Positions 576 through 13,591 of a stretch of 13,921 nucleotides of DNA are shown here, piece after piece. The notes below the pieces were generated by a model that had not been told where the DNA came from, ran no database searches, and saw nothing but the letters and a program-made list of their open reading frames with translations. Numbering within the stretch: position 1 is the first letter of the stretch; every line of letters starts with the position of its first letter. Where the stretch lies: assembly GCA_034717985.1 (NCBI GenBank), contig JAYEMH010000023.1, forward strand, positions 1-13,921. Reading direction: 5' to 3'. The translations under genes and the position numbers were made by a program. Origin of the DNA: JAYEMH01 sp034717985 [NCBI: Candidatus Ratteibacteria bacterium] (GTDB taxonomy: Bacteria; CAZDME01; JAYEMH01).

Positions 576-1325
576 TTATTTTTTACTCCTCTTCTCCCAA
601 TACTTGGCATAACTAAAAAACTGATAAAGAGAATCGGCCGAAGCAATAATTATCCCCATAAAGCCGTCTCTATATCCTTTTTTGAAAAGAAAGCGGCGGA
701 GAAACCGGTCAATCATCTTGCGGCAAAGAGTGAAAAAAGTAATTTTCCTTTTCTCCCGGAACCACTTCTCCGCCTCCTTGGTTGTTTGGGCATTTAGGCT
801 GGCAAAAAAATGCTCCAGGCTGCGATAACCGTAATGTATAATATCGCTATTTAGGAGGCGTGATTTTCCTTCCATGAATATCCGGGGATGAACTTCAGAT
901 TCTTCGTAGCGAAATTCGCCTCTTTTAAAAAGACGCAGCTTTCCGGCCGGATACCAACCGCCGTATTTTATCCAGCGTTTTCCGATATAGGTGCGAATCG
1001 GAATGGCGTAGCCGGTATATTCCTCTTCCTTTTCCAACACCGTTCTTATTTCTTCCGCCAGCGCCGGACTAACCCTTTCATCGGCATCCAGGCTTAAAAT
1101 CCAACCGCCTGCCGCCTGTTGATAAGCCCAGTTACGATGCCGTCCTTCATTTTCCATCCGGCGGATAAAAACCTTATCGGTAAATTGGCGGGTAATTTCT
1201 ACCGTTCTATCCACACTCTGGTCATCGACAACAATGAGTTCATCTGCCCATCGGGCGCTCTTCAGACACTCGGCGATATTTGCCTCTTCGTTTCTGGTAA
1301 TCACTACTACGGAAATCTTATTCAT
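576..1325 (-). CDS. Family 2 glycosyltransferase, WaaE/KdtX-like LPS core sugar transferase
   Basis: A 249-residue GT-A fold glycosyltransferase expected to transfer a sugar from a nucleotide-sugar onto the LPS core on the cytoplasmic side of the inner membrane. It opens with the usual GT2 strand followed by TRNEEANI (10-17). VVDDQSVDRT (32-41) is the nucleotide-binding region, and the DAD metal motif is at 80-82 within SLDADERV. Length and C-terminal architecture match the WaaE/KdtX group of core beta-glucosyltransferase-like proteins, with a basic, aromatic tail (FLRRFLFKK, then YQFFSYAKYWE). The tail probably lies on the membrane surface. The ATG at 1325 overlaps the upstream GT9 stop by 8 nt, indicating translational coupling as the last gene of the operon. 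Donor and acceptor cannot be read from sequence. Confidence 0.88.
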   Translation of the reverse strand: MNKISVVVITRNEEANIAECLKSARWADELIVVDDQSVDRTVEITRQFTDKVFIRRMENEGRHRNWAYQQAAGGWILSLDADERVSPALAEEIRTVLEKEEEYTGYAIPIRTYIGKRWIKYGGWYPAGKLRLFKRGEFRYEESEVHPRIFMEGKSRLLNSDIIHYGYRSLEHFFASLNAQTTKEAEKWFREKRKITFFTLCRKMIDRFLRRFLFKKGYRDGFMGIIIASADSLYQFFSYAKYWEKRSKK

Positions 1326-2367
1326 TTTTTCTCTCCATTATTTTTTTTGCCGCCTGAAAAACTTCCTCGGCACTAACTGCTTTAAGACATTGAAAATCCT
1401 TGCGGCAGTTATGCGCTAAGCATTCTTGACAGCCAGCATCTTTGTGCAGAATAATATGCTCTTCCCCCCAGGGACGCCAGCGCCGGGGAGAAAGACCCGG
1501 TTGTTTCCTTCCAAAAATTACAAGGCAGGGCGTTTTCATCGCCGAGGCAATATGGACCGGCCCTGTGTCGTTAGAGATAAAAAGACGTGAGTGTTTCAAA
1601 ATTGAAGCCAGGTGCCCCATCACCAGTCCTTTAGCGGTAATAACCTTACCTCCGAGTAATTTTTTTAAGCTTTCAAGCAATGAGCTTTCCTTATTACTGC
1701 CGATTATAACAAAATTTACCGGGCCGGATTCTCTTAGTCTCTTCCCTGCTTCAGCAAATCTCTCCACTTCCCACCTTTTAGAAGGACAGCTGGCTCCGGG
1801 CTGCATCGCCACCAGGGGAACATCCTTATTTAATTCATTATTTCTTAAAAACCTCGTTCCAAAATCCTCTTCCTCCCGGCTCAGGCACATTTCCACCTCT
1901 TTATTAGCGGCGGGAATTTCCCGGGCGGCAATTACATCAAGATTATATTCTATTTCGTGTTTTTCTCCTTTGAATTTTTCCTCGGGCAGTTTTTTACTGA
2001 GCAAAAATCCGCATTTTTTATTATACCCGATCCGCTCCGGGATGCCGGCTAAGAAAGTGAGGATATTTACCCGATTGGTCGGGTGGAAGATAAAAGCTAA
2101 ATCAAATTTTTCCCGGGCAAGAGCCCTAATAAATTTAAAACTCCCCCGGAGACTTTTATCTTTCCCCTTTTTATCATAGATAATTACTTCGTTCAGATGA
2201 GGATTATTTTTTACCACCCCGGAGGTGTAGGGCTGGACCATCATCGCCAGGAAGCTTTCAGGAAAACTATGGCGAACGGCCCGAATGACCGGCGTCGTCA
2301 AAACCACATCCCCAATGCGGTCAGTTCGCACCAATAGAATCTTTTTGGGATTTTCTTTGTTCTTCAT
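1318..2367 (-). CDS. GT9 heptosyltransferase-like LPS core glycosyltransferase (third of three in tandem)
   Basis: A 349-residue GT-B protein of glycosyltransferase family 9 (ADP-heptose:LPS heptosyltransferase family, WaaF/WaaC-like). The N-terminal motif KKILLVRTDRIGDVVLTTP (9-26) includes the family Asp (D20). SNDTGPVHIA (265-274) forms the donor-binding loop. Four cysteines at 313, 316, 321 and 327 form the C-x2-C-x4-C-x5-C pattern often seen near the C-terminus of these enzymes. The expected role is adding heptose or a related sugar to the inner core on the cytoplasmic face of the inner membrane. AAGGA precedes the ATG at a suitable distance. The start overlaps the upstream GT9 by 47 nt. 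It is diverged from the two neighbouring GT9 copies, so a different linkage or acceptor is likely. The GPTDP segment after the donor loop is replaced by GRKQP (286-290). Confidence 0.9.
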   Translation of the reverse strand: MKNKENPKKILLVRTDRIGDVVLTTPVIRAVRHSFPESFLAMMVQPYTSGVVKNNPHLNEVIIYDKKGKDKSLRGSFKFIRALAREKFDLAFIFHPTNRVNILTFLAGIPERIGYNKKCGFLLSKKLPEEKFKGEKHEIEYNLDVIAAREIPAANKEVEMCLSREEEDFGTRFLRNNELNKDVPLVAMQPGASCPSKRWEVERFAEAGKRLRESGPVNFVIIGSNKESSLLESLKKLLGGKVITAKGLVMGHLASILKHSRLFISNDTGPVHIASAMKTPCLVIFGRKQPGLSPRRWRPWGEEHIILHKDAGCQECLAHNCRKDFQCLKAVSAEEVFQAAKKIMERKNE

Positions 2368-3316
2368 TTAATATTTCCTTAAAGGCTGAAAAAACCTCAT
2401 CCACGGAAAGCAGTTTCATGCACTGGTGTTTCCCGCCGGGACATTGAGCTAATTCACAGGGAGAACAGGATAAATCTTTTCTTACCACCCGGTTAAGCGG
2501 ACTTAAGGGGCCGTATTTTAAGGGATCGGTCGGCCCAAAAATAGCCAGGGTCGGCACGCCAATTGCACTGGCTAAATGAAGGGGCCCGCTATCATTGGTG
2601 ATAAAAACTTTTGCCCTCTCTAAAAGAGCCGCTAATTCATGAAAGCTCAATTTCCCTCCCAGGTTGAAACTGCCTTCAATTTCCCCGGAGATTTTACGGC
2701 ATTTTTTCCTATCCTCCCGGCCGCCTACGATAACAAGGGGAAAGGAGAATATTTCCTTAATCCGGTGAGCCAATAATATAAATCTTTCATCCCCCCAGCA
2801 TTTGAGATGACTGGCGGCGGTCGGATTGATGACTACCAATCCACCCTCTATTTTCCCGCCGAGTATTCTCTTAATACTCTCTCTGGCGGCCTCCGAAACA
2901 TAAAAAGGAAATCGGATTTTGTCTGTTTTAAAACCAAATCTTTCTAAACTGCGCAGATGTTTTTTTACCCGGTGTTCAGCCGGCCCTGCTTTTTTGAAAA
3001 AAAGAGGACTGCGATTTTTTGCCCCCAGGAATAACGGAAACAAACTATGGCGCAGGTCAACAATCAGATCGTAATGCCTCTTTCTCAGGTGCTTTATAAA
3101 TAGCCATTTCTCCTTCAAAGTCTTACTTTTATCATAAATAATGACTTCGGAGAATTCCGGATTATCTTTAACCGCTCCGTAAGCCCGCCTCCCGACCAGA
3201 ATGGAGATATTCCCCCCGGGAAATTCCTCCCGCAGGACTGCCACAACCGGAAGGGTCAAAATAACGTCGCCAATATTACTTAAACTGATAACAAGAATAT
3301 TATGTATGTCTCGCAT
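2321..3316 (-). CDS. GT9 heptosyltransferase-like LPS core glycosyltransferase (second of three)
   Basis: A GT9-family enzyme of 331 residues from the ATG at 3316. The frame is open to a TTG at 3340, adding eight residues. I prefer the ATG because MRDIHNILVISLSNIGD then matches the start-to-motif distance of the other three GT9 copies, although its Shine-Dalgarno is weak. Recognisable parts are SLSNIGDVILTLP (11-23), the donor loop NDSGPLH (241-247), IFGPTDP (259-265), and cysteines at 284, 287, 292 and 299 within CSPC...CPGGKHQCM. This is close to the classic WaaF-type C-terminal cysteine motif. The expected role is heptose or heptose-like transfer to the inner core on the cytoplasmic side of the membrane. 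It overlaps the next GT9 by 47 nt, so the pair is probably co-translated. Confidence 0.9.
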   Translation of the reverse strand: MRDIHNILVISLSNIGDVILTLPVVAVLREEFPGGNISILVGRRAYGAVKDNPEFSEVIIYDKSKTLKEKWLFIKHLRKRHYDLIVDLRHSLFPLFLGAKNRSPLFFKKAGPAEHRVKKHLRSLERFGFKTDKIRFPFYVSEAARESIKRILGGKIEGGLVVINPTAASHLKCWGDERFILLAHRIKEIFSFPLVIVGGREDRKKCRKISGEIEGSFNLGGKLSFHELAALLERAKVFITNDSGPLHLASAIGVPTLAIFGPTDPLKYGPLSPLNRVVRKDLSCSPCELAQCPGGKHQCMKLLSVDEVFSAFKEILNEEQRKSQKDSIGAN

Positions 3317-3376
3317 TTTCTCAACTTTTTCAAACGGCAAAATTCTTAAATGTCTAATGACGAATGAATCACTACT

Positions 3377-4399
3377 TCAACTCTTCATCATCTTCCCTGC
3401 CGCCTCAATCACTTCTTCCACCGTAATCTTTTCCATACAAATATTTCTCTTCCAGCGGCACCTTTGCGGACAAGGACTGCAATCCAAAGCTTTGTAAATA
3501 ATCCGGGTAGTCTTGCTTCGCGGGGCCCATCGGCGCGGATCCTGGGGGCCAAACATAATCAAAGAGGAAAGACCAACAGCCGAAGCAAGGTGCATCGCCC
3601 CGGTATCGGTGCCGATAAAAAGCCTTGCCTCTTTATATAAACAAGCCAATTCCCTTACGGTAAATTCTCCCGCCGCCACAATTGGTTTTTCTCTCATTAA
3701 ACCGACGATTTCTTCTATTTCTTTTTTTTCGGCAGAGGCCCCGGTAAAGATAATTTCTAAGGGAAAATTCTCTATCAGGTAATCCGAAAGCCGGGCATAA
3801 TTCTCTCCAGACCATTTCCTCCCCCACCAGCCGCCCGCCGGATGAATGACAATAAAATTTGAAATATCCCTTTCCTTTAACCAGCTTTTCACTTTTTCTT
3901 TCTCATCAGCTTCAAACCATGCCTCTAAATCCGGATTTCCGGTCTTTACACCCATGGGTTTAATTACTTCTAAAAGATTTTCTGTCTCGTGCCGAAAAGG
4001 GTCGGCGAAATAAACATTATTCAGAAAGGAATGCCAGCCTTTGGTATTATAGCCTAATCGAATCTTTGCCCCAGCCAGCCAGGAAAGCAGGGCATAACGG
4101 CGGGAATGGTGAAGAATAATTACGGCATCAAACTGTTCTTTTCTCCAGCTTTTCAAAAGTCTTAAGCTTTCGGATAAATTTAGCCTCTTTGGTTTCTTAT
4201 CAAAAACAATTATCTTGTTAAAATATGGATTGCCTTTTAAAATTTCAAGCTGCCCCGGCTGATTCCGTAAGGTTAAACATAACTTAGCCTTTGGAAAATT
4301 TTCTTTAAGCGTCCGAAAAACCGGAACGGCTACCAGCAAATCTCCAATGCCGGGAAAACCTAAAACAATCAAAATGTTTTTTATCTCTATATGTTTCAT
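3377..4399 (-). CDS. GT9 heptosyltransferase-like LPS core glycosyltransferase (first of three)
   Basis: A 340-residue GT9 protein. NILIVLGFPGIGDLLVAVP (8-26) is the N-terminal acceptor-side motif. TDTGAMH (264-270) is the donor loop, with Ala replacing the usual Pro. MFGPQDP (282-288) follows, and cysteines at 307, 310, 314 and 321 complete the C-terminal cysteine cluster, with one residue fewer in the middle spacer than the paralogues. It is the first sugar-transferase gene downstream of the restriction-modification cassette. I see no convincing Shine-Dalgarno or promoter before its ATG, so it may depend on transcription through the cassette. The sugar transferred is unknown; heptose or a related hexose is the family expectation. 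Confidence 0.9.
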   Translation of the reverse strand: MKHIEIKNILIVLGFPGIGDLLVAVPVFRTLKENFPKAKLCLTLRNQPGQLEILKGNPYFNKIIVFDKKPKRLNLSESLRLLKSWRKEQFDAVIILHHSRRYALLSWLAGAKIRLGYNTKGWHSFLNNVYFADPFRHETENLLEVIKPMGVKTGNPDLEAWFEADEKEKVKSWLKERDISNFIVIHPAGGWWGRKWSGENYARLSDYLIENFPLEIIFTGASAEKKEIEEIVGLMREKPIVAAGEFTVRELACLYKEARLFIGTDTGAMHLASAVGLSSLIMFGPQDPRRWAPRSKTTRIIYKALDCSPCPQRCRWKRNICMEKITVEEVIEAAGKMMKS

Positions 4400-4464: not shown

Positions 4465-5202
4465 CTAAAGCAACTGCTCCCACATTTTCCTTGAAGAAGG
4501 AAGGTCTATTTTCATAAATTGCGAGAAGCCGGTTACATTGTAATATTTCCCGAATTGCTTTCTTTTTAATTCATCCCAAACTACTAAATTTACATTGTGT
4601 TTCTTCATCTCGTCAATTTTAGACGGAGAAATGTTCGTATCCGCAGTCATTATATAAATTCTACCCGCATTGGTTGAAACCAACTCTCCAACAACTTGCT
4701 TCCATCTCTCACGCAATGTCCGCTTAATGGAAATAACTACGCAAGCAGTTCTATTCTTCCTAAACGCTTTTTCGCTTGGAATAACATAGTCAACCTTTCC
4801 GTTAAGCATAGTCTGGGTATTAAAAGGATATTTAAGAGACTCAAAAAGATATCGGACATGATTTTCAAAACTACCGCCGGCTCTACTCATTCGCGATTGA
4901 GAAATGCTCCTAAAAAAACCTCTAATATTTTGATAATTATGTTTGAAAGAACTGGCAAGAGAGGAAGTTTTCTTTAGAAGCTTTAATCTTTCCGCCTCTC
5001 TAATAATTTTTTCCGAACACTCCTTTTCTTTTTGTTCATAAAGTTTGAATTCTGTTTCTAATAGTGCTTTTAGACAATTGTTGAAATCAGACTCTATTTG
5101 CGAAGATTTAAAACCGCATTTTTGCTGTGCCGTCTTGGCTAATTTGTCGCCTGACGGCATAAGTTTAACCCTTATTTTTTTCTGAAACTCAAAAAAACTC
5201 AA
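4465..5202 (-). CDS. Type II restriction endonuclease, EcoRII C-terminal / PspGI-like PD-(D/E)xK fold
   Basis: A 245-residue predicted DNA endonuclease partnered with the upstream methyltransferase. SRMSRAGGSFE (103-113) matches the family's S-R-x-G-x-S-x-E helix. Asp138 in KVDYV is the metal ligand. SIK (158-160) followed 13 residues later by Glu173 fits the S-x-K-x12-E signature of the EcoRII/SsoII/PspGI/NgoMIV group. RERWKQV (164-170) aligns with the R/K-(D/E)-R-W-x-Q-V block that contacts CC/GG base pairs in relatives. The residues before about 100 look helical and coiled-coil-like, and there is no EcoRII-type effector domain. The recognition site is inferred to be CC-N/W-GG-like but is not readable here. 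The start is TTG at 5202, supported by AAGGAGGT (5216-5209) six bases upstream. A possible -10 (TATACT, 5235-5230) lacks a good -35. Confidence 0.82.
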   Translation of the reverse strand: MSFFEFQKKIRVKLMPSGDKLAKTAQQKCGFKSSQIESDFNNCLKALLETEFKLYEQKEKECSEKIIREAERLKLLKKTSSLASSFKHNYQNIRGFFRSISQSRMSRAGGSFENHVRYLFESLKYPFNTQTMLNGKVDYVIPSEKAFRKNRTACVVISIKRTLRERWKQVVGELVSTNAGRIYIMTADTNISPSKIDEMKKHNVNLVVWDELKRKQFGKYYNVTGFSQFMKIDLPSSRKMWEQLL

Positions 5203-5224
5203 TTTTCTACCTCCTTTTCATCGC

Positions 5225-5234
5225 ATACCAGTAT
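5225..5234. promoter_or_regulatory. Candidate operator and -10 upstream of the endonuclease
   Basis: ATACCAGTAT is a perfect 10-bp palindrome overlapping the possible minus-strand -10 hexamer TATACT (5235-5230). It lies just upstream of the endonuclease Shine-Dalgarno. Its half-site differs from the GTTA...TAAC palindrome at the lexA-methyltransferase promoter. A matching -35 is not evident, so the promoter itself is uncertain. Confidence 0.3.
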
Positions 5235-5252
5235 AATCAAATTAATCAATTT

Positions 5253-5412
5253 ACCCCGTTAGAAAAAGCCACCAATTTTAATCCTAAAGGATAGACCTTC
5301 CTATTCCTCTTTATGGAAGGGTGTAATCGGAGGTCATCATCATTTGAAGCTAACGGTGGTTTAAAGCCACCGTCAACGCAGGACGTTAGAGAACTTTGTT
5401 CTCTAACGGGGT
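5253..5412. repeat. 160-bp palindromic element between the R-M genes (MITE/REP-like or structured RNA)
   Basis: ACCCCGTTAGA (5253-5263) and its exact inverse complement TCTAACGGGGT (5402-5412) bound the segment. Inside are an 11-bp perfect hairpin (CGTTAGAGAAC 5384-5394 with GTTCTCTAACG 5398-5408, loop TTT) and a 7-bp hairpin (ACGGTGG 5353-5359 with CCACCGT 5367-5373). A CCTTCC/GGAAGG fold-back and a short ATCCT/AGGAT hairpin lie near 5281-5320. GGTGGCTTT occurs twice on the minus strand (5371-5363 and 5273-5265). The right end touches the stop codon of the methyltransferase gene. No T-run follows the hairpins on the minus strand, so it is not an ordinary terminator. A mobile palindromic repeat is the best fit; an RNA structure attenuating transcription or translation between the genes is an alternative. 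Confidence 0.5.
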
Positions 5413-7278
5413 TTACATCTTTTGTAATATAACTATACTTTCTTTTTGGATAGTTTCGGCAAGTTCTCCGGCTTTATTGGTAGGAGAATTTCGCAGTGGC
5501 ATGCGTTTATTGGGTATATTCCTTACTATGATATCCACAGTGTGAAACCCTAAGTTCTCTCCCAATTCAGAGACAATAAAATCAGTAGGCAATTTTACTT
5601 TTTTCACCGTTCTATTTCCAATAACAACACAAAAATATTTGTATCTTTTTAATATTCTATAGGCCTGAGCCGTTGCTTTATTCAAATCTAAATAAAAAGC
5701 AAGTACCTCTTTTGCCCTTGTAGAATCTTGTTCGGCAATTAAACTCAAAATTTTGGCTAAAGACCTTGAATTTAAATTATTTTCAATCTTTGAATTTACT
5801 ACCCCCCCCATAAGCTGACGGTCAATCTGCAAATCATCATCGCTTATCATATCAAGCCATTGAAGAGAAAGCCTGGAAAACTGCCCATAAGCAACTGTTG
5901 TTCTGCTGTCGCCATAAGGAGGTGAAGTGATTATGCAGTCAATAGATTCATTATTTATATCATATCTTTCAGTTGAGTCGGCCTGAAGAATCTTAACCCA
6001 AGTTGAATTATCAAGGTCATTATAAAATCCCTTCATTCCTTTGATATTCTTCTCCACACACCTGTTAAATATAGAGATCACATTAGGATTATAGTCGTTT
6101 AATTTCTCTTTCGGCATTCTAAATAACTTGAATTCGCCATTTCTTGTGTTGGAAGCAAATTTAACCGTTTCACTGAAGGTAACAAGAAAAAAATCTTTTA
6201 TGTCTTTATTTTTAATTTTATCAATACATTTTTTTATCTTGGTTAATTCATAAATCACATTTTCTTTGAACCAGAAATTAATGTTAAAAAATTGAGGGAA
6301 TTCTCCCTTTTTTGGTTTATAATCAAGAATGTCAGAAAGTAAAGAAAGATATGTTTTTTGTAATGCTTCCGGTTTTAAAGGGGTAGTTTTAACTTTTGCC
6401 AGAAATACACCAAGCGGGTTTAATTCGATACCATAAGCATTTCTACCCAAGAGTCTGCTTTCCACCAAAGCTGTTCCACTCCCGCAAAAAATATCGCAAA
6501 TCGTATCACCTATTTGACTACAATTTAATATAATTCTTCTAGCTACTTGCGGTATAAACATTGCCGGATAATTATGAAGTCCATGTGTATATGACTTTGT
6601 ATTTTCTCCTCTAAAGTCCCAAGAACAATCAATTCTCCTTTTTTTGCTTTTATAACTTTTCTCTATTTCCCCTTTACCATTATTCAGGTTTCTAATAATG
6701 CTGATAACTTTTCCTCTTATCACCAATTCTTTTGTTGCTATTGGCGGCACATAAGGGTTTGCCGATTTCAACATAAATAAATCATCATTAATATAAAATT
6801 TTTTGAGCGTTGCTTCATTATTGTTTATTACTGCTACGATAGTATCACCTTGCTCGGCCGTGGGCTGCTCGCGAATAATTACAAAATCGCCGTCAAAAAT
6901 GCCTTCATTAATCATACTCTCACCTTTTACTTTTAGCACATAGTGTCTGCCGGACCTTGAAATCAAGGATCTTGATACGGTTACCGGCTCTGCATTCTCT
7001 ACAATTTCAATCGGCCTGCCAGCCGCAATAATCCCTAAAAGAGGCAGGGTTATTCGTTCTGTCACGTCTTCTTTGCCATAGACATTTATTGAGCGCGGCT
7101 GGTTTTCTTCAGCAGTAAGATAATTCTTAGCTTTCAAAGCGGCAATATGCTGATGAACCGTAGAGACAGAGGAAAGTTTAAAATGGCGGGCAATTTCTTC
7201 TAAGGACGGCGAAAAATCATTATCTGTTATGAATTTATGTATATAATCTAATATCTCTTTTTGTCTTTTAGTCAACAT
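5413..7278 (-). CDS. LexA repressor fused to a DNA (N4/N6) methyltransferase
   Basis: A 621-residue fusion. Residues 1-200 are a whole LexA: the winged helix-turn-helix (1-65), the self-cleavage bond Ala86-Gly87 in LGIIAAGRP, Ser121 in KGESM and Lys159 in EATLKKF. Residues 215-621 are an amino-methyltransferase: a motif X-like stretch around 229-250, the S-adenosylmethionine loop FCGSG (264-268) after Asp262, IELNP (284-288), and the catalytic TSPPY (451-455). The TSPPY form is common in N4-cytosine enzymes, which suits the EcoRII-like nuclease next door. About 160 residues between IELNP and TSPPY may hold the target-recognition domain. LexA is known to bind operators and cleave itself with activated RecA; here that would separate the HTH from dimerisation domain plus methyltransferase. 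HTH-methyltransferase autorepressors (M.EcoRII, M.SsoII) are known; a complete S24/LexA version is unusual. Translation starts at the ATG with no Shine-Dalgarno. Confidence 0.88.
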   Translation of the reverse strand: MLTKRQKEILDYIHKFITDNDFSPSLEEIARHFKLSSVSTVHQHIAALKAKNYLTAEENQPRSINVYGKEDVTERITLPLLGIIAAGRPIEIVENAEPVTVSRSLISRSGRHYVLKVKGESMINEGIFDGDFVIIREQPTAEQGDTIVAVINNNEATLKKFYINDDLFMLKSANPYVPPIATKELVIRGKVISIIRNLNNGKGEIEKSYKSKKRRIDCSWDFRGENTKSYTHGLHNYPAMFIPQVARRIILNCSQIGDTICDIFCGSGTALVESRLLGRNAYGIELNPLGVFLAKVKTTPLKPEALQKTYLSLLSDILDYKPKKGEFPQFFNINFWFKENVIYELTKIKKCIDKIKNKDIKDFFLVTFSETVKFASNTRNGEFKLFRMPKEKLNDYNPNVISIFNRCVEKNIKGMKGFYNDLDNSTWVKILQADSTERYDINNESIDCIITSPPYGDSRTTVAYGQFSRLSLQWLDMISDDDLQIDRQLMGGVVNSKIENNLNSRSLAKILSLIAEQDSTRAKEVLAFYLDLNKATAQAYRILKRYKYFCVVIGNRTVKKVKLPTDFIVSELGENLGFHTVDIIVRNIPNKRMPLRNSPTNKAGELAETIQKESIVILQKM

Positions 7279-7281
7279 ACC

Positions 7282-7308
7282 GTTACTATAACCGAAAATA
7301 AACCGAAA
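7282..7308. promoter_or_regulatory. Candidate autorepressor sites: 11-bp palindrome plus a direct repeat
   Basis: On the minus strand GTTATAGTAAC (7292-7282) is a palindrome with 4-bp arms covering the -10 hexamer. TTTCGGTT occurs twice (7308-7301 and 7297-7290) with an 11-bp period, about one helical turn, filling the promoter spacer. Either could be bound by the LexA HTH. Neither matches the E. coli CTGT-N8-ACAG or Bacillus GAAC-N4-GTTC box, but LexA sites differ between phyla. Confidence 0.45.
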
Positions 7309-7313
7309 GTCAA
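7285..7313 (-). promoter_or_regulatory. Promoter of the lexA-methyltransferase gene, predicted to give a leaderless mRNA
   Basis: TTGACT (7313-7308) and TATAGT (7290-7285) are separated by exactly 17 bp on the minus strand. Six bases follow the -10 before the ATG at 7278, so the expected +1 is the start codon itself. No Shine-Dalgarno lies in the preceding 20 bases, which agrees with leaderless translation. The -35 overlaps the TGA stop of the upstream GT4 gene. Confidence 0.7.
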
Positions 7314-8410
7314 GATTTTTCTTGATTTCCTTGATTTTTCAGCAATTCTTCATAAAGCGTTTCCATTTCCCGGGCCATTCGCTTAACATCGAATTTTTCT
7401 TCTACTTTCCGGCGGGCCGCATCCCCCAGATCTTTTCTTAAGTTCTTATCCCGAATCAACCTCTGAATAGCCCCGGCTAAATCTTTAGCCTCTCCGGGAG
7501 AAACCAGAAGACCGTCTCTTCCATCATCAATTACCGAAGGAATTCCCCCCACCCGGCTGGCCACTACCGCCTTACCGCTGGCCATCGCCTCCAAAAGGGA
7601 AATTCCCAGTCCTTCCTGAAGCGAAGGTTGCACAAATATATCGATAAGTTTTAAGGCCCTGACACTGTCTAAATAATCTATCCGGATAATTCTTTTATCA
7701 TTCGAAAAGGGTAAAATAGATTTATCATCTTTTTTGCCGCTGCCGACAAGGATAAATTTTACAGCCGGTTCGTTCAACGAAGATATCGCTTCCAAAAAAA
7801 AGCGGTGGCCTTTTTCCGGCGAAATTCTCCCGATCATTCCAACCGTAAGAACATTATCCAGGCTAAACTTCCGGCGTAAAATTTTATCTTCTTCATTTAC
7901 CCCGGGAGAAAATTTTTCTAAATCTACGCCGGTAAATACCACCTTCACTTTTTTCTCCTGTAATTTAAAATCATTTACCAAATGCTCTTTAACCGCCGGA
8001 CTGATAGCCACCGTTTTCTCTCCCCATGCCGGAAAAATTTTCCTTCCCCACCGCACTTTATAATACCCATGAGCCGTGACGAGGTGATGAACTCCGGTTT
8101 TCCGGGAAAGCTGCCAGCCGACACAGTGGGTTACCCGGGTGTGGGTGTGAATAATTTGAATTTTTTCCTGAGCGATAATTTTTTTAAGCCGGGCGGCGCT
8201 CCGCCAGAGTTTAGGACTCAACTCTGATTTGGTGTTTATCGGAAGGGGAATATGTTTTATGCCCGCTTTTTCAAATTCAGAAACCAGACTGCCGCCGCTG
8301 GAGGCAGCCAAAACCAGATGGCCTCTCTCCAATAAAGCCCGGGATAAATTGTACAGATAGCTGGTAATCCCGCCGCGATTCAAGTGAGTGGTAAACTGCA
8401 GTATCTTCAT
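7310..8410 (-). CDS. Family 4 glycosyltransferase (GT-B), LPS core or outer-core sugar transferase
   Basis: A 366-residue retaining GT4 enzyme. The N-terminal domain opens MKILQFTTHLNRGG with the glycine-rich acceptor loop, and HTHTR (88-92) and TAHGYY (112-117) are typical GT4 segments. The donor domain starts near VGMIGRISPEKG (190-201), and the EX7E catalytic pair is Glu266 and Glu274 in EGLGISLLEAMASG. The C-terminal helix ends in a short repeated NQG/NQE tail. It would act at the cytoplasmic face of the inner membrane on the growing core. It is separated from the preceding GT9 by 88 nt filled with heptad repeats. Its stop codon lies within the -35 of the lexA-methyltransferase promoter, so it is the last gene before the R-M cassette. 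It resembles the other GT4 gene at 9485-10591, suggesting an old duplication. Confidence 0.9.
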   Translation of the reverse strand: MKILQFTTHLNRGGITSYLYNLSRALLERGHLVLAASSGGSLVSEFEKAGIKHIPLPINTKSELSPKLWRSAARLKKIIAQEKIQIIHTHTRVTHCVGWQLSRKTGVHHLVTAHGYYKVRWGRKIFPAWGEKTVAISPAVKEHLVNDFKLQEKKVKVVFTGVDLEKFSPGVNEEDKILRRKFSLDNVLTVGMIGRISPEKGHRFFLEAISSLNEPAVKFILVGSGKKDDKSILPFSNDKRIIRIDYLDSVRALKLIDIFVQPSLQEGLGISLLEAMASGKAVVASRVGGIPSVIDDGRDGLLVSPGEAKDLAGAIQRLIRDKNLRKDLGDAARRKVEEKFDVKRMAREMETLYEELLKNQGNQEKS

Positions 8411-8423
8411 TTACTCTTATTAG

Positions 8424-8505
8424 TTCATAGCTCTTTGCTCTTTGCTCTTTGCTCTTAGCTCATAGTCGTACTTCTATCTTTTTACTATGAGCCATCAGCT
8501 ATGAG
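8424..8505. repeat. Heptad tandem repeats with inverted partner copies
   Basis: Six consecutive 7-mers occupy 8424-8465: TTCATAG, CTCTTTG three times, CTCTTAG and CTCATAG. After a 19-bp spacer, CTATGAG, CCATCAG and CTATGAG (8485-8505) are the same unit in the opposite orientation. CTCATAG and CTATGAG can pair to form a stem. A related copy lies at 4428-4445. The repeat supplies the final codons and stop of the neighbouring GT9 gene. Confidence 0.65.
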
Positions 8506-9503
8506 CTTAAGTTATACCTCGTTGGGTTATTCGTTTTCATAATCTGCTTGATTTTATCCAGCACCTCTTCCACCCGAATAAGCTTCATACACTGATGAGC
8601 AGAACACCTCCGCCGGTAACAGGGCTGACAGGAGAGATTCTTTTTAATGATATATAAATTAGATGAAGGAATAGTGTGCCGCATGGGATCAGTCGGGCCA
8701 AAAAGAGCTAACGTCGGCACACCTAAAGCCTGGGCTAAATGCATCGGGCCTGTATCGTGGGTAATAAACAAAGAACTTCCTTTTATAACCCCCGCCAGTT
8801 GAATTAGTTTTGTCTGCCCCGACATATCTTGCCCTTTTTCCCTCATTGCTTTTTTGATTCGTTCAATCTTATTTTTTTCTCTTTTTTCTCCGAGGAAAAC
8901 TGCTGAATATTTGAGTTTGTTTATTATACTATCAGCCATGCGGGCAAAACAAAGTTCGCTCCAGCATTTACTCTGCCAGCCTTCTCCGGATCCCGGAAGG
9001 ATAGAAATATAAGGTTTAGGAAACGGCAAAGAAACAATGGAGGGTATTTTACATTCTAATTCAAAATTATCTAAATTAATTCCAATCTTTGACAAAAGGC
9101 GGGCCTGATGCTCTACTGGATTTTCTATTTTTTTTGGCTGGGCAGCGGCGACATTCAATAATAATCTTCCGCCTTTTCTCCCGTAACCGACTCTGCGCTT
9201 CACCCCGACCAAAAAAGATAAGAGGTGACTGCGCCAGGTATTCTGGAAATCAATACTCAGGTCAAACTTTTCTTTTTTTAGTTCAGGGATCAAGTCCCTC
9301 CAGTTTGATTTTTTAAAATCTATAAAATTGTCAATATAGGAAAGAGAATTTAAAAGTTCCTGATATTCTTTTTTTATCAAAAGGTGAATTTTTGCCTGGG
9401 GAAAATGCGCCCGGATAGCCCGGAAAGACGGTACTGCCAGGATTATATCCCCCATGGCGCTCCATTTGAATATAAGGATTTTCCTTATTTCTCCCTTAAG
9501 CAC
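8499..9503 (-). CDS. GT9 heptosyltransferase-like LPS core glycosyltransferase
   Basis: A 334-residue GT9 enzyme starting at GTG (9503). KILIFKWSAMGDIILAVP (8-25) is the N-terminal family motif. LPGSGEGWQSKCW (169-181) and THDTGPMH (248-255) form the donor pocket, FGPTDP (268-273) follows, and cysteines at 292, 295, 300 and 305 make the C-terminal cluster. The expected activity is adding heptose or a similar sugar to Kdo-lipid A at the inner membrane. The start overlaps the upstream GT4 gene by 19 nt. The last residues, LSS, and the stop are encoded by a CTATGAG heptad repeat, so the original C-terminus may have been altered by the repeat. It is separated from the other three GT9 genes by a GT4 gene and the R-M cassette. 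Confidence 0.9.
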   Translation of the reverse strand: MLKGEIRKILIFKWSAMGDIILAVPSFRAIRAHFPQAKIHLLIKKEYQELLNSLSYIDNFIDFKKSNWRDLIPELKKEKFDLSIDFQNTWRSHLLSFLVGVKRRVGYGRKGGRLLLNVAAAQPKKIENPVEHQARLLSKIGINLDNFELECKIPSIVSLPFPKPYISILPGSGEGWQSKCWSELCFARMADSIINKLKYSAVFLGEKREKNKIERIKKAMREKGQDMSGQTKLIQLAGVIKGSSLFITHDTGPMHLAQALGVPTLALFGPTDPMRHTIPSSNLYIIKKNLSCQPCYRRRCSAHQCMKLIRVEEVLDKIKQIMKTNNPTRYNLSS

Positions 9504-10591
9504 TCTCGATAAACCTTAATTGTTTCCCGGTACATCTTATCCAGATTAAACTCGTTTAAAACCTTCTGCCGGCCTCTTTGAGCCAAATTATATGATTCTT
9601 CCTTATGCTCAAGCATCCAGCTTATGGCTTGAGCTAAACTTAAAGCATCTCCCGGGGGAACCAATTTTCCGGTAATATTATCCTCTATGATATCTTTTAC
9701 CCCTCCGAGGTCAGTGGCTATCACCGGTTTTCCCAAAAATAAGGCTTCAACCACTACCCGGCCAAAAGATTCCGGCTCGACCGAAGGAAAAACCAGTAAA
9801 TCCAGGGCAGAAATAATCTGCGGAATATCATCCCGTCTCCCGGTGAAAATTACCTCCCCTTCAAGATTTTCCTTTCTCACTTTTTCCTTAAGTCTTTTTA
9901 AGAAATCTTCTTTAGCGGCCTTTCCCACAATCAAAGCCCGAAAAGAATAATCTTCTCTTTTTAGATATGCCAGGGCTTCCAGAAAAAAAAGAGTTCCCTT
10001 GCGCGGTGTCAAACGGCCGATCATACCAATAAGATTTTCCGCCTGGCCGGCTAATTGCCTTCGCAATCGCCCGGAATTTTCTAAACCGGGGATTGATTTG
10101 AATTTCTCCAGGTCAATCCCCCGGTGGACTAAACGCAATTTCTCTTCGGTCAGGCGGAAATTTCTTTTCATATATTCCTTCAAAGGAATGCTGACCACAA
10201 TTACCCGCTTTCCGAAAGCCATCACCCGGCTGGCCGGATGCCTGCGGTAAAATCCATGGGCGGTGGTAACAAAAGGAACCTTTTCTTGTTTTGAAGCCAG
10301 ATAGCCAATCCAGGCTGGAACACGGGAGCGGGCATGAACCAAATCAATTTGTTCATCCCTTATAATTTTTCTCACCGGAGCAATGAGGGAAAGAATAGAA
10401 AAAACGGATTTGCGATGAACAGGGAGGGAATAATGTTTAATATCCGTCTCTTTTAACTCCTCAAGGAGCGCCCCGCCGTTAGATATGACAATAGCGCCAT
10501 GACCGTCCTTGACTAAAGTCATGGCTAAATCAATTGTCCCTCTCTCTACTCCGCCCAACTCCAAATTAGGAACCATCTGCAATATCTTCAT
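9485..10591 (-). CDS. Family 4 glycosyltransferase (GT-B), LPS core sugar transferase
   Basis: A 368-residue GT4 enzyme. MKILQMVPNLELGGVERG (1-18) carries the glycine loop, HARSR (86-90) and TAHGFY (110-115) lie in the N-terminal domain, and IGMIGRLTPRKG (188-199) opens the donor domain. The catalytic EX7E pair is Glu274 and Glu282 in ESFGRVVVEALFLG. A basic, helical stretch around 134-150 probably lies against the membrane. Its ATG overlaps the TGA of the LpxL-ELM1 gene in an ATGA, indicating coupled translation, and its 3' end overlaps the GT9 gene by 19 nt. As the first sugar transferase after the lipid A genes, it may add an early core sugar onto Kdo; this is inferred from gene order only. 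Confidence 0.9.
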   Translation of the reverse strand: MKILQMVPNLELGGVERGTIDLAMTLVKDGHGAIVISNGGALLEELKETDIKHYSLPVHRKSVFSILSLIAPVRKIIRDEQIDLVHARSRVPAWIGYLASKQEKVPFVTTAHGFYRRHPASRVMAFGKRVIVVSIPLKEYMKRNFRLTEEKLRLVHRGIDLEKFKSIPGLENSGRLRRQLAGQAENLIGMIGRLTPRKGTLFFLEALAYLKREDYSFRALIVGKAAKEDFLKRLKEKVRKENLEGEVIFTGRRDDIPQIISALDLLVFPSVEPESFGRVVVEALFLGKPVIATDLGGVKDIIEDNITGKLVPPGDALSLAQAISWMLEHKEESYNLAQRGRQKVLNEFNLDKMYRETIKVYRECLREK

Positions 10592-12540
10592 AAAGCCACC
10601 AGCAAGTCTTTGACTCTTTCAATTGCCTTTTCTGTATCGTTGAGCGCTTTAGGAGTAAATCTCTCGGTAATAATCTGGCTGACTACCTGACCAAGATTAT
10701 CGGCTTCAGCCAAGCGCAGGTAACCCTTTTGGGCTAATTTCTGAATTGTCTCTAAATGCCGGGGTGTTTTCTTTCGGGATTTTCTGTCAATTTGCAAAAC
10801 AACAACTTTCTTGCCTGAACCGGCCGCTTCGGCAATCATAGAAATGCTATCTTCAGTTACAATAACTACCTCGCTTAACCCCAGAATTCCTCCGGTCGGG
10901 TTAAAACTTTCTTCCCGGGGAGAAATGAATAATTGTAAGTTTGAGAAATCTTTTAGATTACTTTTAAGCTGTTGTTCAATGTGAATCGGGGTGCGGCGAG
11001 AAGTAGTAAGCAGAAGCATAAATCCATGAGCCTGACAGATTTTCTTTATTTCTTCAATCATTTTCCTTAAGGTATTCTCTGATATGAAAAAGTGAGGGTT
11101 TTCTCCCCCGAGAAGCAGGCCCAAAAATTTATCTCCTTTTAGAGAAAATTTACTTTCAAGGATTTGGGAAAGCCGCTTGAAATCTTCACCTCTCAAGGGC
11201 TGGGGAGAAGCAAGGGTGTTTAAAACATTTTTTACTATTGGAAGATGGTCGTGCTGAGGAGCAATAACCAGGTCAAAAAGCTTCACATCCAGTATTCCCG
11301 GTCTCATACAGACAATTGTCTTAGCCCCGGTTTGTTTTCCGAATAAAAGATTACAGACGGCTAAGGAGCTGCCGGCGGAAATAATCACCTGGGGAAAAAA
11401 TGAATTTAATTTTCCGAAAGAATCCCGGCGCAAAGCTTTTTTCAGCAAATATTTAATTAAGTTTAACCGTTTCAGCGCCGGCGCTAATAAAGGCATAAAA
11501 ATCTTCCAGAATTTATTTCGAAAATCTATTTTCACCTCTAATACTTCTGCCGCCGGAAAGCCCCGGACAATACCTCTGGACTGACTCAGGTGTCCGGCTT
11601 TTCCGTCGCTGAGAATCATTATCCTGATTTTCCTGGCGGCAAAATCTCTCTCCTTGACAGGCTGGGTTTTCCACCTCCGGTGAAGCCATAGCCATTGTTC
11701 CGGATGAAGCCAAATATAAGATTCCAGTATCCGGCTAAACTCCTGAAGGCCTCCTTTTACTATCTCCTGAGCACTGCTGCCGCCTGCCTGCCTGGATTCT
11801 AAACGGAGAGGCGGACTGATATAGATTTTATGCTTGAAGCCGGAACGAACGATAAAACAGGGAATGACCGGGGCACCCGTTCTTAAGGCAAGCAGAATTG
11901 GACCGGGATGGGTTGAAGCCGGACGGCGAAAGAAATTTATAAATATTCCGCGCCGGCCGGCATCCTGATCTCCTAAAACACCCACGAATTCATTTCTGCG
12001 AATAGCGCCCATTAAATCGCGAATAGCCATTCCTTTAGCATAAACCTTGATTCCAGAACCGGCTCGATATTGATTAAGAAGAGCGTTTAGCCGGCTTTGT
12101 CTCTGCTCACGGGCAAGCACCCTTAAAGGATAACCTTTAAGACCTGCCCAGACGGCAGAGAGTTCCCAGTTGCCAAAATGCGCCGTAAGTAAAATCCCTC
12201 CCCGACCCTGAGCACAGGCATCATCCAAATGTTTTCTCCCTTCAACGGTAATAAACCGGTCAATCAATTCAACATTTAACCTGGGAAAAAGCAAAACTTC
12301 AAAGAAAGTCTGGCATAAATTCATATAAGAGCACCGGGCAATTTTTTTAAGCTCCAGCATATTTTTTGCCGAACCGAAGGCCGCCTTGAGATTGCGAAGG
12401 CTGATATTGCGGTGTTTCCGGTCAAGGTAATAAATGACGCTGCCGATTATCCCGCCCAAATAAATTACCGCTTTTTGCGGAAGGTTCCTAAGCAGACAGC
12501 CCAAAAATTTAACCGTTAAATATTCAAGATAGCCAAGCAT
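10588..12540 (-). CDS. Bifunctional fusion: LpxL/HtrB-type lipid A acyltransferase with a C-terminal ELM1 (DUF1022) domain
   Basis: A 650-residue two-domain protein. Residues 1-295 are a lysophospholipid-acyltransferase-type lipid A secondary acyltransferase. It has a hydrophobic N-terminal anchor (about 5-40), the catalytic HX4E motif HFGNWE (121-126), GVLGDQDAG (187-195) and FFRRPASTHPG (203-213). Such enzymes transfer an acyl chain to Kdo-lipid A at the inner membrane. Residues 303-650 resemble the ELM1/DUF1022 family: RIMILSDGKAGHLSQSRGI (305-323) near its start, LLLGGENPHF in the middle and VTEDSISMIAEAAGSGKKV near the C-terminus. The domain is thought to adopt a GT-B-like fold; its bacterial role is unknown to me. 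The fusion is in frame with no composition break that I noticed. It overlaps lpxK by 17 nt and the next GT4 by 4 nt. The acyl donor cannot be predicted. Confidence 0.85.
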   Translation of the reverse strand: MLGYLEYLTVKFLGCLLRNLPQKAVIYLGGIIGSVIYYLDRKHRNISLRNLKAAFGSAKNMLELKKIARCSYMNLCQTFFEVLLFPRLNVELIDRFITVEGRKHLDDACAQGRGGILLTAHFGNWELSAVWAGLKGYPLRVLAREQRQSRLNALLNQYRAGSGIKVYAKGMAIRDLMGAIRRNEFVGVLGDQDAGRRGIFINFFRRPASTHPGPILLALRTGAPVIPCFIVRSGFKHKIYISPPLRLESRQAGGSSAQEIVKGGLQEFSRILESYIWLHPEQWLWLHRRWKTQPVKERDFAARKIRIMILSDGKAGHLSQSRGIVRGFPAAEVLEVKIDFRNKFWKIFMPLLAPALKRLNLIKYLLKKALRRDSFGKLNSFFPQVIISAGSSLAVCNLLFGKQTGAKTIVCMRPGILDVKLFDLVIAPQHDHLPIVKNVLNTLASPQPLRGEDFKRLSQILESKFSLKGDKFLGLLLGGENPHFFISENTLRKMIEEIKKICQAHGFMLLLTTSRRTPIHIEQQLKSNLKDFSNLQLFISPREESFNPTGGILGLSEVVIVTEDSISMIAEAAGSGKKVVVLQIDRKSRKKTPRHLETIQKLAQKGYLRLAEADNLGQVVSQIITERFTPKALNDTEKAIERVKDLLVAL

Positions 12541-13591
12541 CTAAAACTTCCTCACCGTGTACTACCTTCAATTTGACTTTGAGGATTAATATGGGAAATT
12601 TTACCAAAACCTTTGGTAATTTCACCTCATCTTTTTCGGTGGTGACAATAAATTCAGCTTTTTTGAGTCTGGCTGAATTTATTACCGCACTTAAATCTCC
12701 TGGACGGTAATAATAATGATCCGGATAAACCGCCTCGCCGACTAAATCTCCTCCAAGCTGGAGGAGCGAATACCGAAAGGATGAGGGAGAGTTAATCCCG
12801 GCCAGCATAAAAATCGCTTTTTCCCGGATGAATTCTTTCGCCTTTGTCTCTCCCCCTGGCCAGAGGTGAAATTCAACCGGCTCAAAGACAGTTTCTACTA
12901 TCGGGGCATGGGCATTAAATCTTCTTATTTCCTTTTTTAAACCGGTAATTTGATTTTTATCTTCATTAACCTTAGAAAGAAAAATTATTTGAGCCCGTTT
13001 TAATTGACCAAGCGGTTCTCTCAAGCTTCCGGCCGGAATTAACCAGCGGTTACCAAAAGGATTGGTGCTGTCAATCACCACTAAATCTATGTTCCTTTTT
13101 AACGAACGGTGCTGAAATCCATCGTCAAGAATTATAGTCCCTGGCTGAAACCTGTTAATTGCCCATTTCCCGCTGTTAAAACGATTACTCCCGACAACCA
13201 CCGGTCTTCCGGGTAGTTTTTTAGCCAATAGATAAGGTTCATCCCCGGCCTCCCTGGCCCCGGCTAAAATCCTGCTTTCATCTGAAACCAGAGTAATTTT
13301 TTCGTTTTGCCCCCGGCGGCCATAACCCCGGCTTAGAACAACCGCTTTTTTTGAGCTCAGTCTCCGGACGACAAACTCCACCAGCGGTGTCTTGCCTGTT
13401 CCGCCCCAGGTGAGATTACCGATGCTGATAACCTGACAGGGCAGCGATTGGCTTTTTTTAATTCCTGATTTGTAAAGAAATCCCCGAAAAACAAGGTAGA
13501 GATAATAAACAAATGACAAAGGCCAGAAGAATAGAATAGACACTTTATTTTTAACTAACCGTTGATATGTAGTATAGACCGATTTCTTCAA
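12524..13591 (-). CDS. lpxK: Tetraacyldisaccharide 4'-kinase LpxK
   Basis: A 355-residue LpxK, which phosphorylates the 4' position of the lipid A disaccharide using ATP at the inner membrane. A hydrophobic N-terminal segment (17-36) anchors it. The P-loop is GNLTWGGTGKTP (58-69). LSRGYGRRG (86-94), AGDEPYLLA (115-123) and ILDDGFQHR (154-162) are characteristic of LpxK, and PAGSLREP (186-193) follows. Length is normal for the family. The start is a TTG at 13591 with GAGGG five bases upstream. It begins 11 nt after the waaA stop and overlaps the acyltransferase gene by 17 nt, consistent with a lipid A operon. No catalytic segment appears missing. Confidence 0.93.
   Translation of the reverse strand: MKKSVYTTYQRLVKNKVSILFFWPLSFVYYLYLVFRGFLYKSGIKKSQSLPCQVISIGNLTWGGTGKTPLVEFVVRRLSSKKAVVLSRGYGRRGQNEKITLVSDESRILAGAREAGDEPYLLAKKLPGRPVVVGSNRFNSGKWAINRFQPGTIILDDGFQHRSLKRNIDLVVIDSTNPFGNRWLIPAGSLREPLGQLKRAQIIFLSKVNEDKNQITGLKKEIRRFNAHAPIVETVFEPVEFHLWPGGETKAKEFIREKAIFMLAGINSPSSFRYSLLQLGGDLVGEAVYPDHYYYRPGDLSAVINSARLKKAEFIVTTEKDEVKLPKVLVKFPILILKVKLKVVHGEEVLDAWLS

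What the first reader, a model, noticed from the sequence alone, without database searches (positions are those of the whole stretch)
5413..7278. LexA fused to a DNA methyltransferase: an R-M system whose methylase carries a self-cleaving SOS repressor
Seen: one uninterrupted 621-codon frame holds a full LexA (HTH, Ala86-Gly87, Ser121, Lys159) followed by a full amino-methyltransferase (FCGSG 264-268, TSPPY 451-455), with an EcoRII-like nuclease gene downstream. Known: M.EcoRII and M.SsoII use short N-terminal HTHs to repress their own genes, and LexA cleaves itself when RecA is activated on damaged DNA. Inferred: operator binding would keep methylase, and perhaps nuclease, low. DNA damage or phage infection would detach the HTH and derepress the system while leaving an active dimeric methyltransferase. 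I do not know of a characterised R-M system with an intact LexA regulator fused to its methylase.
Basis: partly seen in the sequence, partly recalled or inferred. Interest (0 to 1): 0.87.

Follow-up and report, generated by a model that had tools for sequence, protein, structure and literature searches.

The report
LexA-headed methyltransferases of restriction systems
A bacterial DNA-marking enzyme carries a complete, self-cutting SOS repressor as its head and has a matching repeat in its own promoter, so the cell probably makes more of the protective enzyme whenever its own restriction enzyme breaks its DNA; the same design recurs on several other classes of marking enzyme.

Summary
It is no assembly accident: 45 of the 80 best genome loci hold the same fusion, mostly in Patescibacteria and Omnitrophota. 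The cleavage site and catalytic dyad are invariant in 47 of 47. LexA is also fused to D12, C5, MT-A70 and other N6_N4 methyltransferases. Fused LexA domains group apart from ordinary ones. New here: a period-11 direct-repeat operator in the promoter (window 7291-7308, filling the -35/-10 spacer), present at most fused genes; its half-site agrees with LexA residue 43 in 57 of 57 classed loci. So the head is probably a dedicated autorepressor. I infer that restriction breaks activate RecA, LexA cuts itself, and methyltransferase synthesis rises: an anti-suicide loop. Binding and RecA-dependent cleavage are untested. I found no published description, but the key Patescibacteria SOS paper was not readable.

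The parts
5413..7278 (-). LexA-methyltransferase fusion gene, 621 aa
   Evidence: homologues over the whole length
7069..7278 (-). LexA winged-helix DNA-binding domain, about residues 1-70; residue 43 (Gln) agrees with the operator half-site across relatives
6685..7056 (-). S24 self-cleavage and dimerisation domain, about residues 75-198: Ala86-Gly87, Ser121, Lys159
   Evidence: low dN relative to dS
6634..6684 (-). flexible linker, about residues 199-215
   Evidence: pLDDT under 50 at residues 198-210; highest dN of the four parts
5416..6633 (-). amino-methyltransferase domain, residues 216-621, family whose plasmid members stand beside MvaI/BcnI nucleases, probably N4-cytosine
7291..7308 (-). 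operator TTTCGGTTTATTTTCGGT, direct repeat of period 11
7285..7313 (-). promoter-like site TTGACT-17-TATAGT, spacer filled by the operator; the -10 ends 6 bases before the start codon, so the mRNA may be leaderless
   Evidence: such sites are not more frequent than in shuffles of this region: 6 against 8.0; conserved geometry
4465..5202 (-). EcoRII-C type restriction nuclease, 245 aa, TTG start, keeps the TLRERW stretch of Ecl18kI
   Evidence: 82% identical counterpart in L219
5203..5412 (-). 210-nt spacer with a hairpin and inverted-repeat element; the sister operon has 25 nt there

Best explanation
It is the modification enzyme of a type II restriction-modification system whose head is a dedicated LexA autorepressor. 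The intact dimer sits on the direct-repeat operator inside its own promoter and keeps methyltransferase synthesis low (operator, promoter geometry and residue-43/half-site match shown; binding inferred). If methylation falls behind, the partner nuclease cuts the chromosome; RecA filaments form on the breaks; the LexA part cleaves itself at Ala86-Gly87 and releases the DNA-binding head (intact residues shown; cleavage inferred). The remaining S24-methyltransferase fragment should stay active while the promoter opens, so more methyltransferase is made until the sites are protected and whole repressor accumulates again. In the window the nuclease lies downstream on the same strand, so it may be induced with the methyltransferase; in most relatives it is encoded convergently and not from this operator.
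For: Fusion in 45 of the 80 genome loci kept, in 0 of 29 viral and 0 of 8 plasmid loci. A86, G87, S121 and K159 invariant in 47 of 47 same-class fusions and 21 of 21 other long LexA proteins. Operator score 17 or more in 34 of 43 fused promoters against a shuffled mean of 1.15. 6-mer direct repeats at spacing 11 in 49 of 65 fused promoters, at most 5 at any other spacing from 6 to 21. Of 55 promoters with a site of 16 or more, 43 sites overlap the -35/-10 region and 9 lie within 20 nt after the -10. Residue 43 is Gln or Glu in 17 of 17 GG operators and in 0 of 40 TA or GA operators. An exact operator pattern occurs 20 times in 45 genomes, 16 times at the fused gene. RecA in 42 of 45 host genomes. 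S24 part under purifying selection. SOS induction by unbalanced R-M and autorepression by methyltransferase HTHs are published (PMC3874152, passages and section 17 read).
Against: No DNA binding, cleavage or induction has been measured. Nine of 43 promoters miss the score of 17, and 4 of 30 ordinary lexA promoters reach it. Residue 43 was picked as the best of the domain's columns, other columns also vary with the operator, and classes use the second half-site only; the independent-pair test has just 4 supported pairs (p 0.125), and the finer GA-versus-TA contrast is not supported. RecA was not found in 3 of 45 genomes, which are MAGs. In the window the upstream glycosyltransferase gene is on the same strand and ends 31 bases before the start codon, so read-through could bypass the operator. 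If the released fragment is degraded or inactive, cleavage would not help protection.
Confidence: 0.7

Rival explanations
1. Plain autorepressor: the LexA head only measures methyltransferase concentration, as the N-terminal HTH of M.EcoRII or M.SsoII does, and self-cleavage plays no part.
For: The operator lies in the promoter, and HTH-based autorepression by modification enzymes is published (PMC3874152). A short HTH would suffice for this.
Against: The S24 domain with cleavage site and dyad is kept in 68 of 68 long LexA proteins, though their partners differ, and its dN is low.
Confidence: 0.17
2. Global SOS repressor that happens to be fused: the protein controls the host's repair genes.
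For: It passes the LexA equivalog cut-off. Period-11 repeats also occur in 8 of 30 ordinary lexA promoters. G001 and G002 show only one LexA match. The looser pattern TTCGG-N6-TTCGG exceeds its reversed control in some genomes: G002 13 to 9, G038 8 to 3, G025 7 to 3, G007 5 to 1, G039 12 to 1; I did not look at the genes beside those sites.
Against: The exact operator pattern hits 18 of 45 genomes; 16 of 20 hits are at the fused gene and the 4 others equal the 4 hits of the reversed control. Over the 45 genomes the looser pattern totals 124 against 116 for its control, by my sum. By my count 24 of the 45 genomes also hold a LexA-sized match (190-260 aa, over the cut-off).
Confidence: 0.06
3. 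Defence induction: phage-caused damage derepresses methyltransferase and nuclease together to strengthen restriction.
For: In the window and in L219 the nuclease is downstream on the same strand, 25 nt away in L219, with no promoter-like site on the minus strand in the window spacer.
Against: In 41 of 42 relatives with the MvaI/BcnI-like cluster the nuclease is convergent and no operator of score 18 or more lies before it. Raising methyltransferase would help an entering phage to become methylated (inference).
Confidence: 0.07

Closest known systems
M.EcoRII, M.SsoII and M.Ecl18kI type autoregulated modification enzymes
   Same: The modification enzyme represses its own gene through an operator at the promoter (PMC3874152 section 17; PMC3695355 abstract).
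   Different: Those named are C5-methyltransferases with a short N-terminal regulatory part, and Ecl18kI adds divergent genes with promoter competition. Here the head is a whole self-cleaving LexA, found on several methyltransferase classes.
LexA, SOS repressor
   Same: HTH, Ala-Gly site, Ser-Lys dyad, operator-like repeat at its own promoter; best solved relative T. maritima LexA.
   Different: Fused to a DNA methyltransferase, with an exact operator found almost only at its own gene, in a group apart from ordinary LexAs.
Alphaproteobacterial LexA operator GTTC-N7-GTTC
   Same: Direct repeat of period 11 with a TTC core (PMC8565304 and PMC3323433, passages read).
   Different: Here TTC is followed by variable GG, TA or GA and the spacer is mostly A+T.
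C-protein controlled R-M systems
   Same: A small HTH gene stands beside the nuclease in 16 of 46 loci examined (two of the 16 checked by Pfam).
   Different: There a separate C protein times the system; here the methyltransferase has its own LexA head. I saw no such gene beside the window's nuclease (frames of 80 aa or more).
MvaI/BcnI and PspGI/Ecl18kI/EcoRII systems
   Same: Methyltransferase relatives stand beside MvaI/BcnI nucleases; the window nuclease is of the EcoRII-C family.
   Different: The window pairs this methyltransferase with an EcoRII-C nuclease and a LexA head.

Membership tests
LexA repressor (TIGR00498) | LexA HTH plus S24 domain above the curated cut-off | tested here: met
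   178 bits against 110.95, residues 2-198
LexA repressor (TIGR00498) | Ala-Gly cleavage site, catalytic Ser and Lys | tested here: met
   A86, G87, S121, K159; invariant in 68 of 68 long LexA proteins
LexA repressor (TIGR00498) | operator in its own promoter | tested here: met
   direct repeat 7291-7308, by sequence only; binding not measured
LexA repressor (TIGR00498) | RecA-dependent self-cleavage | not testable with these tools
   needs a bench assay
LexA repressor (TIGR00498) | control of a repair regulon | tested here: inconclusive
   in relatives' genomes 16 of 20 exact-pattern hits are at the fused gene, but 27 of 45 genomes have no exact hit, a looser pattern exceeds its control in some genomes, and the window's own genome is not held
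Autorepressing modification enzyme (M.EcoRII/M.SsoII type) | N-terminal DNA-binding part on the methyltransferase | tested here: met
Autorepressing modification enzyme (M.EcoRII/M.SsoII type) | operator overlapping the promoter of the methyltransferase gene | tested here: met
   by sequence only
Autorepressing modification enzyme (M.EcoRII/M.SsoII type) | C5-cytosine methyltransferase with a short HTH | tested here: not met
   N6_N4_Mtase and a whole LexA; C5 partners were seen only in two relatives
Type II R-M system | complete methyltransferase | tested here: met
   PDLC03322 positions 17-442 of 446; motifs aligned
Type II R-M system | partner nuclease with family motifs | tested here: met
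   EcoRII-C and aligned TLRERW stretch; activity not tested
Type II R-M system | matching DNA specificity of the two enzymes | not testable with these tools
   a CCNGG-type site is inferred from relatives only (specificities recalled)
MvaI/BcnI-partner methyltransferase family, N4-cytosine | sequence kinship with family members | tested here: met
   up to 49% identity to plasmid members, several beside such nucleases
MvaI/BcnI-partner methyltransferase family, N4-cytosine | product is N4-methylcytosine | not testable with these tools
   only weak annotated kin, 24-25% identity

The most novel reading that the evidence does not exclude
A dedicated LexA lineage works as an interchangeable control head for DNA methyltransferases: it has moved among at least four Pfam methyltransferase families (five kinds if the window's class is counted apart from other N6_N4 enzymes) that stand beside at least nine families of type II restriction enzyme, and gives these systems a feedback in which the cell's own restriction breaks, read through RecA, raise its own protection. 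Some operators may even act in trans on unfused methyltransferases.
Probability: 0.55. Interest if true: 0.9.

Novelty: new variant of a known kind. Interest (0 to 1): 0.8.

Why it matters
How restriction-modification systems avoid killing their hosts is usually answered by timing (C proteins) or by concentration sensing (short HTHs). This design would sense the damage itself: restriction breaks would release the brake on the enzyme that prevents them. It couples immunity to the SOS response in one polypeptide, is spread over poorly cultured phyla, and offers a residue-to-operator match that can be tested at the bench. It would also explain why some Patescibacteria genomes carry several LexA genes.

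Tried and rejected
Assembly chimera or frameshift: rejected, the fusion is in 45 of the 80 genome loci kept, L009 at 80% among them, and in G434 at 81%. Phage or plasmid origin: no fused copy in 29 viral loci or 8 plasmid loci; the first viral scan with the window sequence alone found nothing. Global SOS regulator: see rivals. A specificity rule inside the TA/GA group: not supported. A fusion in the phylum of the L081 genome (Parageobacillus): none of the matches listed for 299 genomes spans both halves (the list is cut, but a full-length match would rank first). Foldseek added nothing beyond LexA and generic methyltransferase folds. Whether the 2017 paper on the Patescibacteria SOS network (Environ Microbiol 19:3465, known to me only from reference lists) mentions these fusions could not be read. 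Paper searches; I saw listings with starts of abstracts, and for only part of the papers found was listed. Rows dropped: two of 59 promoters (half-sites AG and GC) were left out of the two-class test; one of 21 other long LexA proteins (L174) was not scanned; fused loci cut near the start codon were left out of promoter counts; of 19 neighbourhoods listed, downstream genes of 11 were scanned.

Full report
What is there. The frame at 5413-7278 is on the minus strand and codes for 621 residues. Residues 2-198 pass the LexA equivalog model (178 bits, cut-off 111), with both LexA Pfam domains. Residues 212-620 match a type II methyltransferase model almost end to end (455 bits). AlphaFold2 on an alignment of 53 sequences gives a confident HTH, S24 domain and methyltransferase (mean pLDDT 84, pTM 0.65) joined by a linker of low confidence at 198-210; Foldseek ranks LexA structures first. 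Downstream on the same strand is an EcoRII-C nuclease that keeps the TLRERW stretch of Ecl18kI. The window's genome is not held; two of the surrounding genes were scanned and are a glycosyltransferase and a heptosyltransferase-family gene, and the nearest relatives of the fusion are Omnitrophota.

The fusion is real and widespread. As the 80 were ranked by likeness to the fusion, 45 of 80 is not a frequency. By their titles 32 of the 45 belong to Patescibacteria lineages and 4 to Omnitrophota; one each is called WOR-3, Bdellovibrio and Deltaproteobacteria, and 6 are unspecified (my reading of the names). None of 29 viral loci and none of 8 plasmid loci is fused. In samples of whole genomes the full-length fusion was found in 4 of 237 genomes of the L009 phylum (three of the four were already known), and no listed match in 299 genomes of the Parageobacillus phylum spans both halves (list cut).

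LexA heads on other methyltransferases. Besides the first fusion the LexA model finds 11 matches in frames of 383-530 aa in 9 of the 45 genomes, and 11 in frames of 522-633 aa in a sample of 379 genomes of the L026 phylum (the list is cut, so this is a lower bound). I fetched these; one (L196) is of the window's class. Of the 21 others, 20 were scanned and all 20 carry a DNA methyltransferase: 13 N6_N4, 4 D12, 2 C5 and 1 MT-A70. Two further cases from the L009 phylum are N6_N4. Their downstream neighbours are mostly type II nucleases: 9 of 11 tested match a restriction enzyme family (PADLOC 8 of 10; Pfam 7 of 10, namely HindIII, MamI, MunI, TaqI, Bsp6I, EcoRV and BsaWI; nine of the proteins were in both calls). 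With MvaI/BcnI (4 of 4 tested) and EcoRII-C that is nine named families.

One lineage, many partners. In a tree of 98 LexA domains the 30 unfused LexAs lie on one side of a branch (support 76). A group of 67 has SH-aLRT 97: all are fusions except one cut by its contig end, and one (L174) has an unscanned partner. One D12 fusion (L192) is unresolved. Inside the group C5 and D12 partners sit among the window's class and MT-A70 among N6_N4, so heads have changed partners. This was a quick tree without the mixture model, some unfused rows have long branches, and 20 of the 30 unfused rows were taken from the best-scoring LexAs.

Cleavage chemistry. A86, G87, S121 and K159 are identical in 47 of 47 proteins of the window's class and in 21 of 21 others. 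Between the window and its two close relatives the S24 part has dN/dS of about 0.05-0.07, like the methyltransferase (about 0.04-0.07); synonymous sites are near saturation, so this is rough. RecA was found in 42 of 45 host genomes.

Operator. Upstream of the fused genes stands a direct repeat of period 11, TTTCxxTTTATTTTCxxT. A score of 17 or more occurs in 34 of 43 promoters, against 1.15 on average in shuffles; at 16 or more, 36 of 43 fused promoters and 3 of 32 unfused methyltransferase loci have a site. In a second count 34 of 44 promoters of the window's class, 15 of 21 other fusions and 4 of 30 ordinary lexA genes reach 17. Without assuming a motif, 49 of 65 fused promoters hold a 6-mer direct repeat at spacing 11 and at most 5 at any other spacing from 6 to 21; in 30 ordinary lexA promoters 8 do, so the spacing is probably shared with ordinary LexAs of these groups. 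Of 55 promoters with a site of 16 or more, 43 sites overlap the best -35/-10 pair, 9 lie within 20 nt after the -10, 2 lie elsewhere and 1 has no promoter-like pair (loose criteria). In the window the operator fills the spacer of TTGACT-17-TATAGT, and the start codon follows 6 bases after the -10. An exact form of the operator, taken from the fused promoters, occurs 20 times in 18 of 45 genomes, 16 times at the fused gene; the other 4 hits equal the number of hits of the reversed control. One of the 4 lies upstream of an unfused methyltransferase-like gene. A looser TTCGG-N6-TTCGG pattern totals 124 hits against 116 for its control over these genomes by my sum, with excesses in a few (sites not inspected).

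Residue 43 and half-sites. Residue 43 lies in the recognition helix (by my recall it corresponds to Glu45 of E. coli LexA). It was the column with the strongest link to the half-site; other columns vary with it too. In 57 promoters whose second half-site is GG, TA or GA, residue 43 is Gln or Glu in 17 of 17 GG cases and in 0 of 40 others. On a tree of the S24 part only, 4 supported independent pairs all agree, too few for significance (p 0.125); the finer TA/GA contrast is not supported.

The nuclease. In the usual layout the nuclease stands tail-to-tail with the fused gene: an MvaI/BcnI-like cluster is present in 42 of 46 loci examined and convergent in 41 of them, with a small HTH gene beside it in 16. 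No operator of score 18 or more lies on that side, a threshold that 27 of 43 fused promoters reach, so weaker sites are not excluded. The window differs: EcoRII-C nuclease, same strand. A second genome of the L009 phylum (L219/L231) repeats this, with the nuclease 82% identical and 25 nt downstream. So the unit is probably an operon there; in the window a 210-nt spacer with hairpins separates the two genes, and no promoter-like site was seen on the minus strand in that spacer.

Mechanism. Shown: domain make-up, intact cleavage residues, operator in the promoter, half-site agreement, exact operator mostly at the fused gene, nuclease neighbours. Inferred: binding, RecA-driven cleavage, derepression, continued activity of the released methyltransferase. 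Published support for the logic: restriction imbalance induces SOS, and modification enzymes can repress their own genes (PMC3874152, passages and section 17 read). I therefore favour a self-damage feedback that raises protection.

Known or new. In ten paper searches no listed title or start of abstract describes LexA fused to a methyltransferase; LexA with methyltransferase and Patescibacteria gave 0 papers. A 2017 paper on the Patescibacteria SOS network is not held, so prior mention cannot be excluded. As a kind it is a variant of autorepressing modification enzymes, with a self-cleaving SOS head as the new element.

Noticed in passing
window 5203-5412: Spacer with a perfect hairpin and outer inverted repeat CCCCGTTAGA...TCTAACGGGG, folding better than shuffles (z -2.9) and absent between the genes of the sister operon; a similar hairpin stands upstream of the fused gene in L219. 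The exact hairpin was in none of 218 loci. Looks like a small repeat element.
   Followed up: partly
L232 2106-4855 and L233 279-2983: An unfused LexA followed by a separate methyltransferase-like gene and a third gene that may be a nuclease, perhaps a two-gene counterpart of the fusion (families not scanned).
   Followed up: no
L156 530-1516: An exact operator stands about 120 nt before an unfused methyltransferase-like gene (not scanned) in a genome with three LexA-methyltransferase fusions: possible control in trans.
   Followed up: no
L231 1-1326 and 3889-5754: Two different LexA-methyltransferase fusions on one 6.3-kb contig.
   Followed up: partly
L005 2179-4365: A Lactococcus plasmid relative of the methyltransferase has about 290 extra N-terminal residues holding a second DPPY-like motif, possibly two methyltransferases in one chain.
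   Followed up: no
L011 9860-11355: A BsaWI-like nuclease gene lies between the fused gene and its MvaI/BcnI-like nuclease; a BsaWI-like nuclease is also the neighbour in L196.
   Followed up: no
window 1318-4399 and 7310-13591: The system sits inside a co-directional run of genes that look like sugar- and lipid A-transferases (most names are my reading of the sequence, two were scanned), so read-through into it is possible.
   Followed up: no
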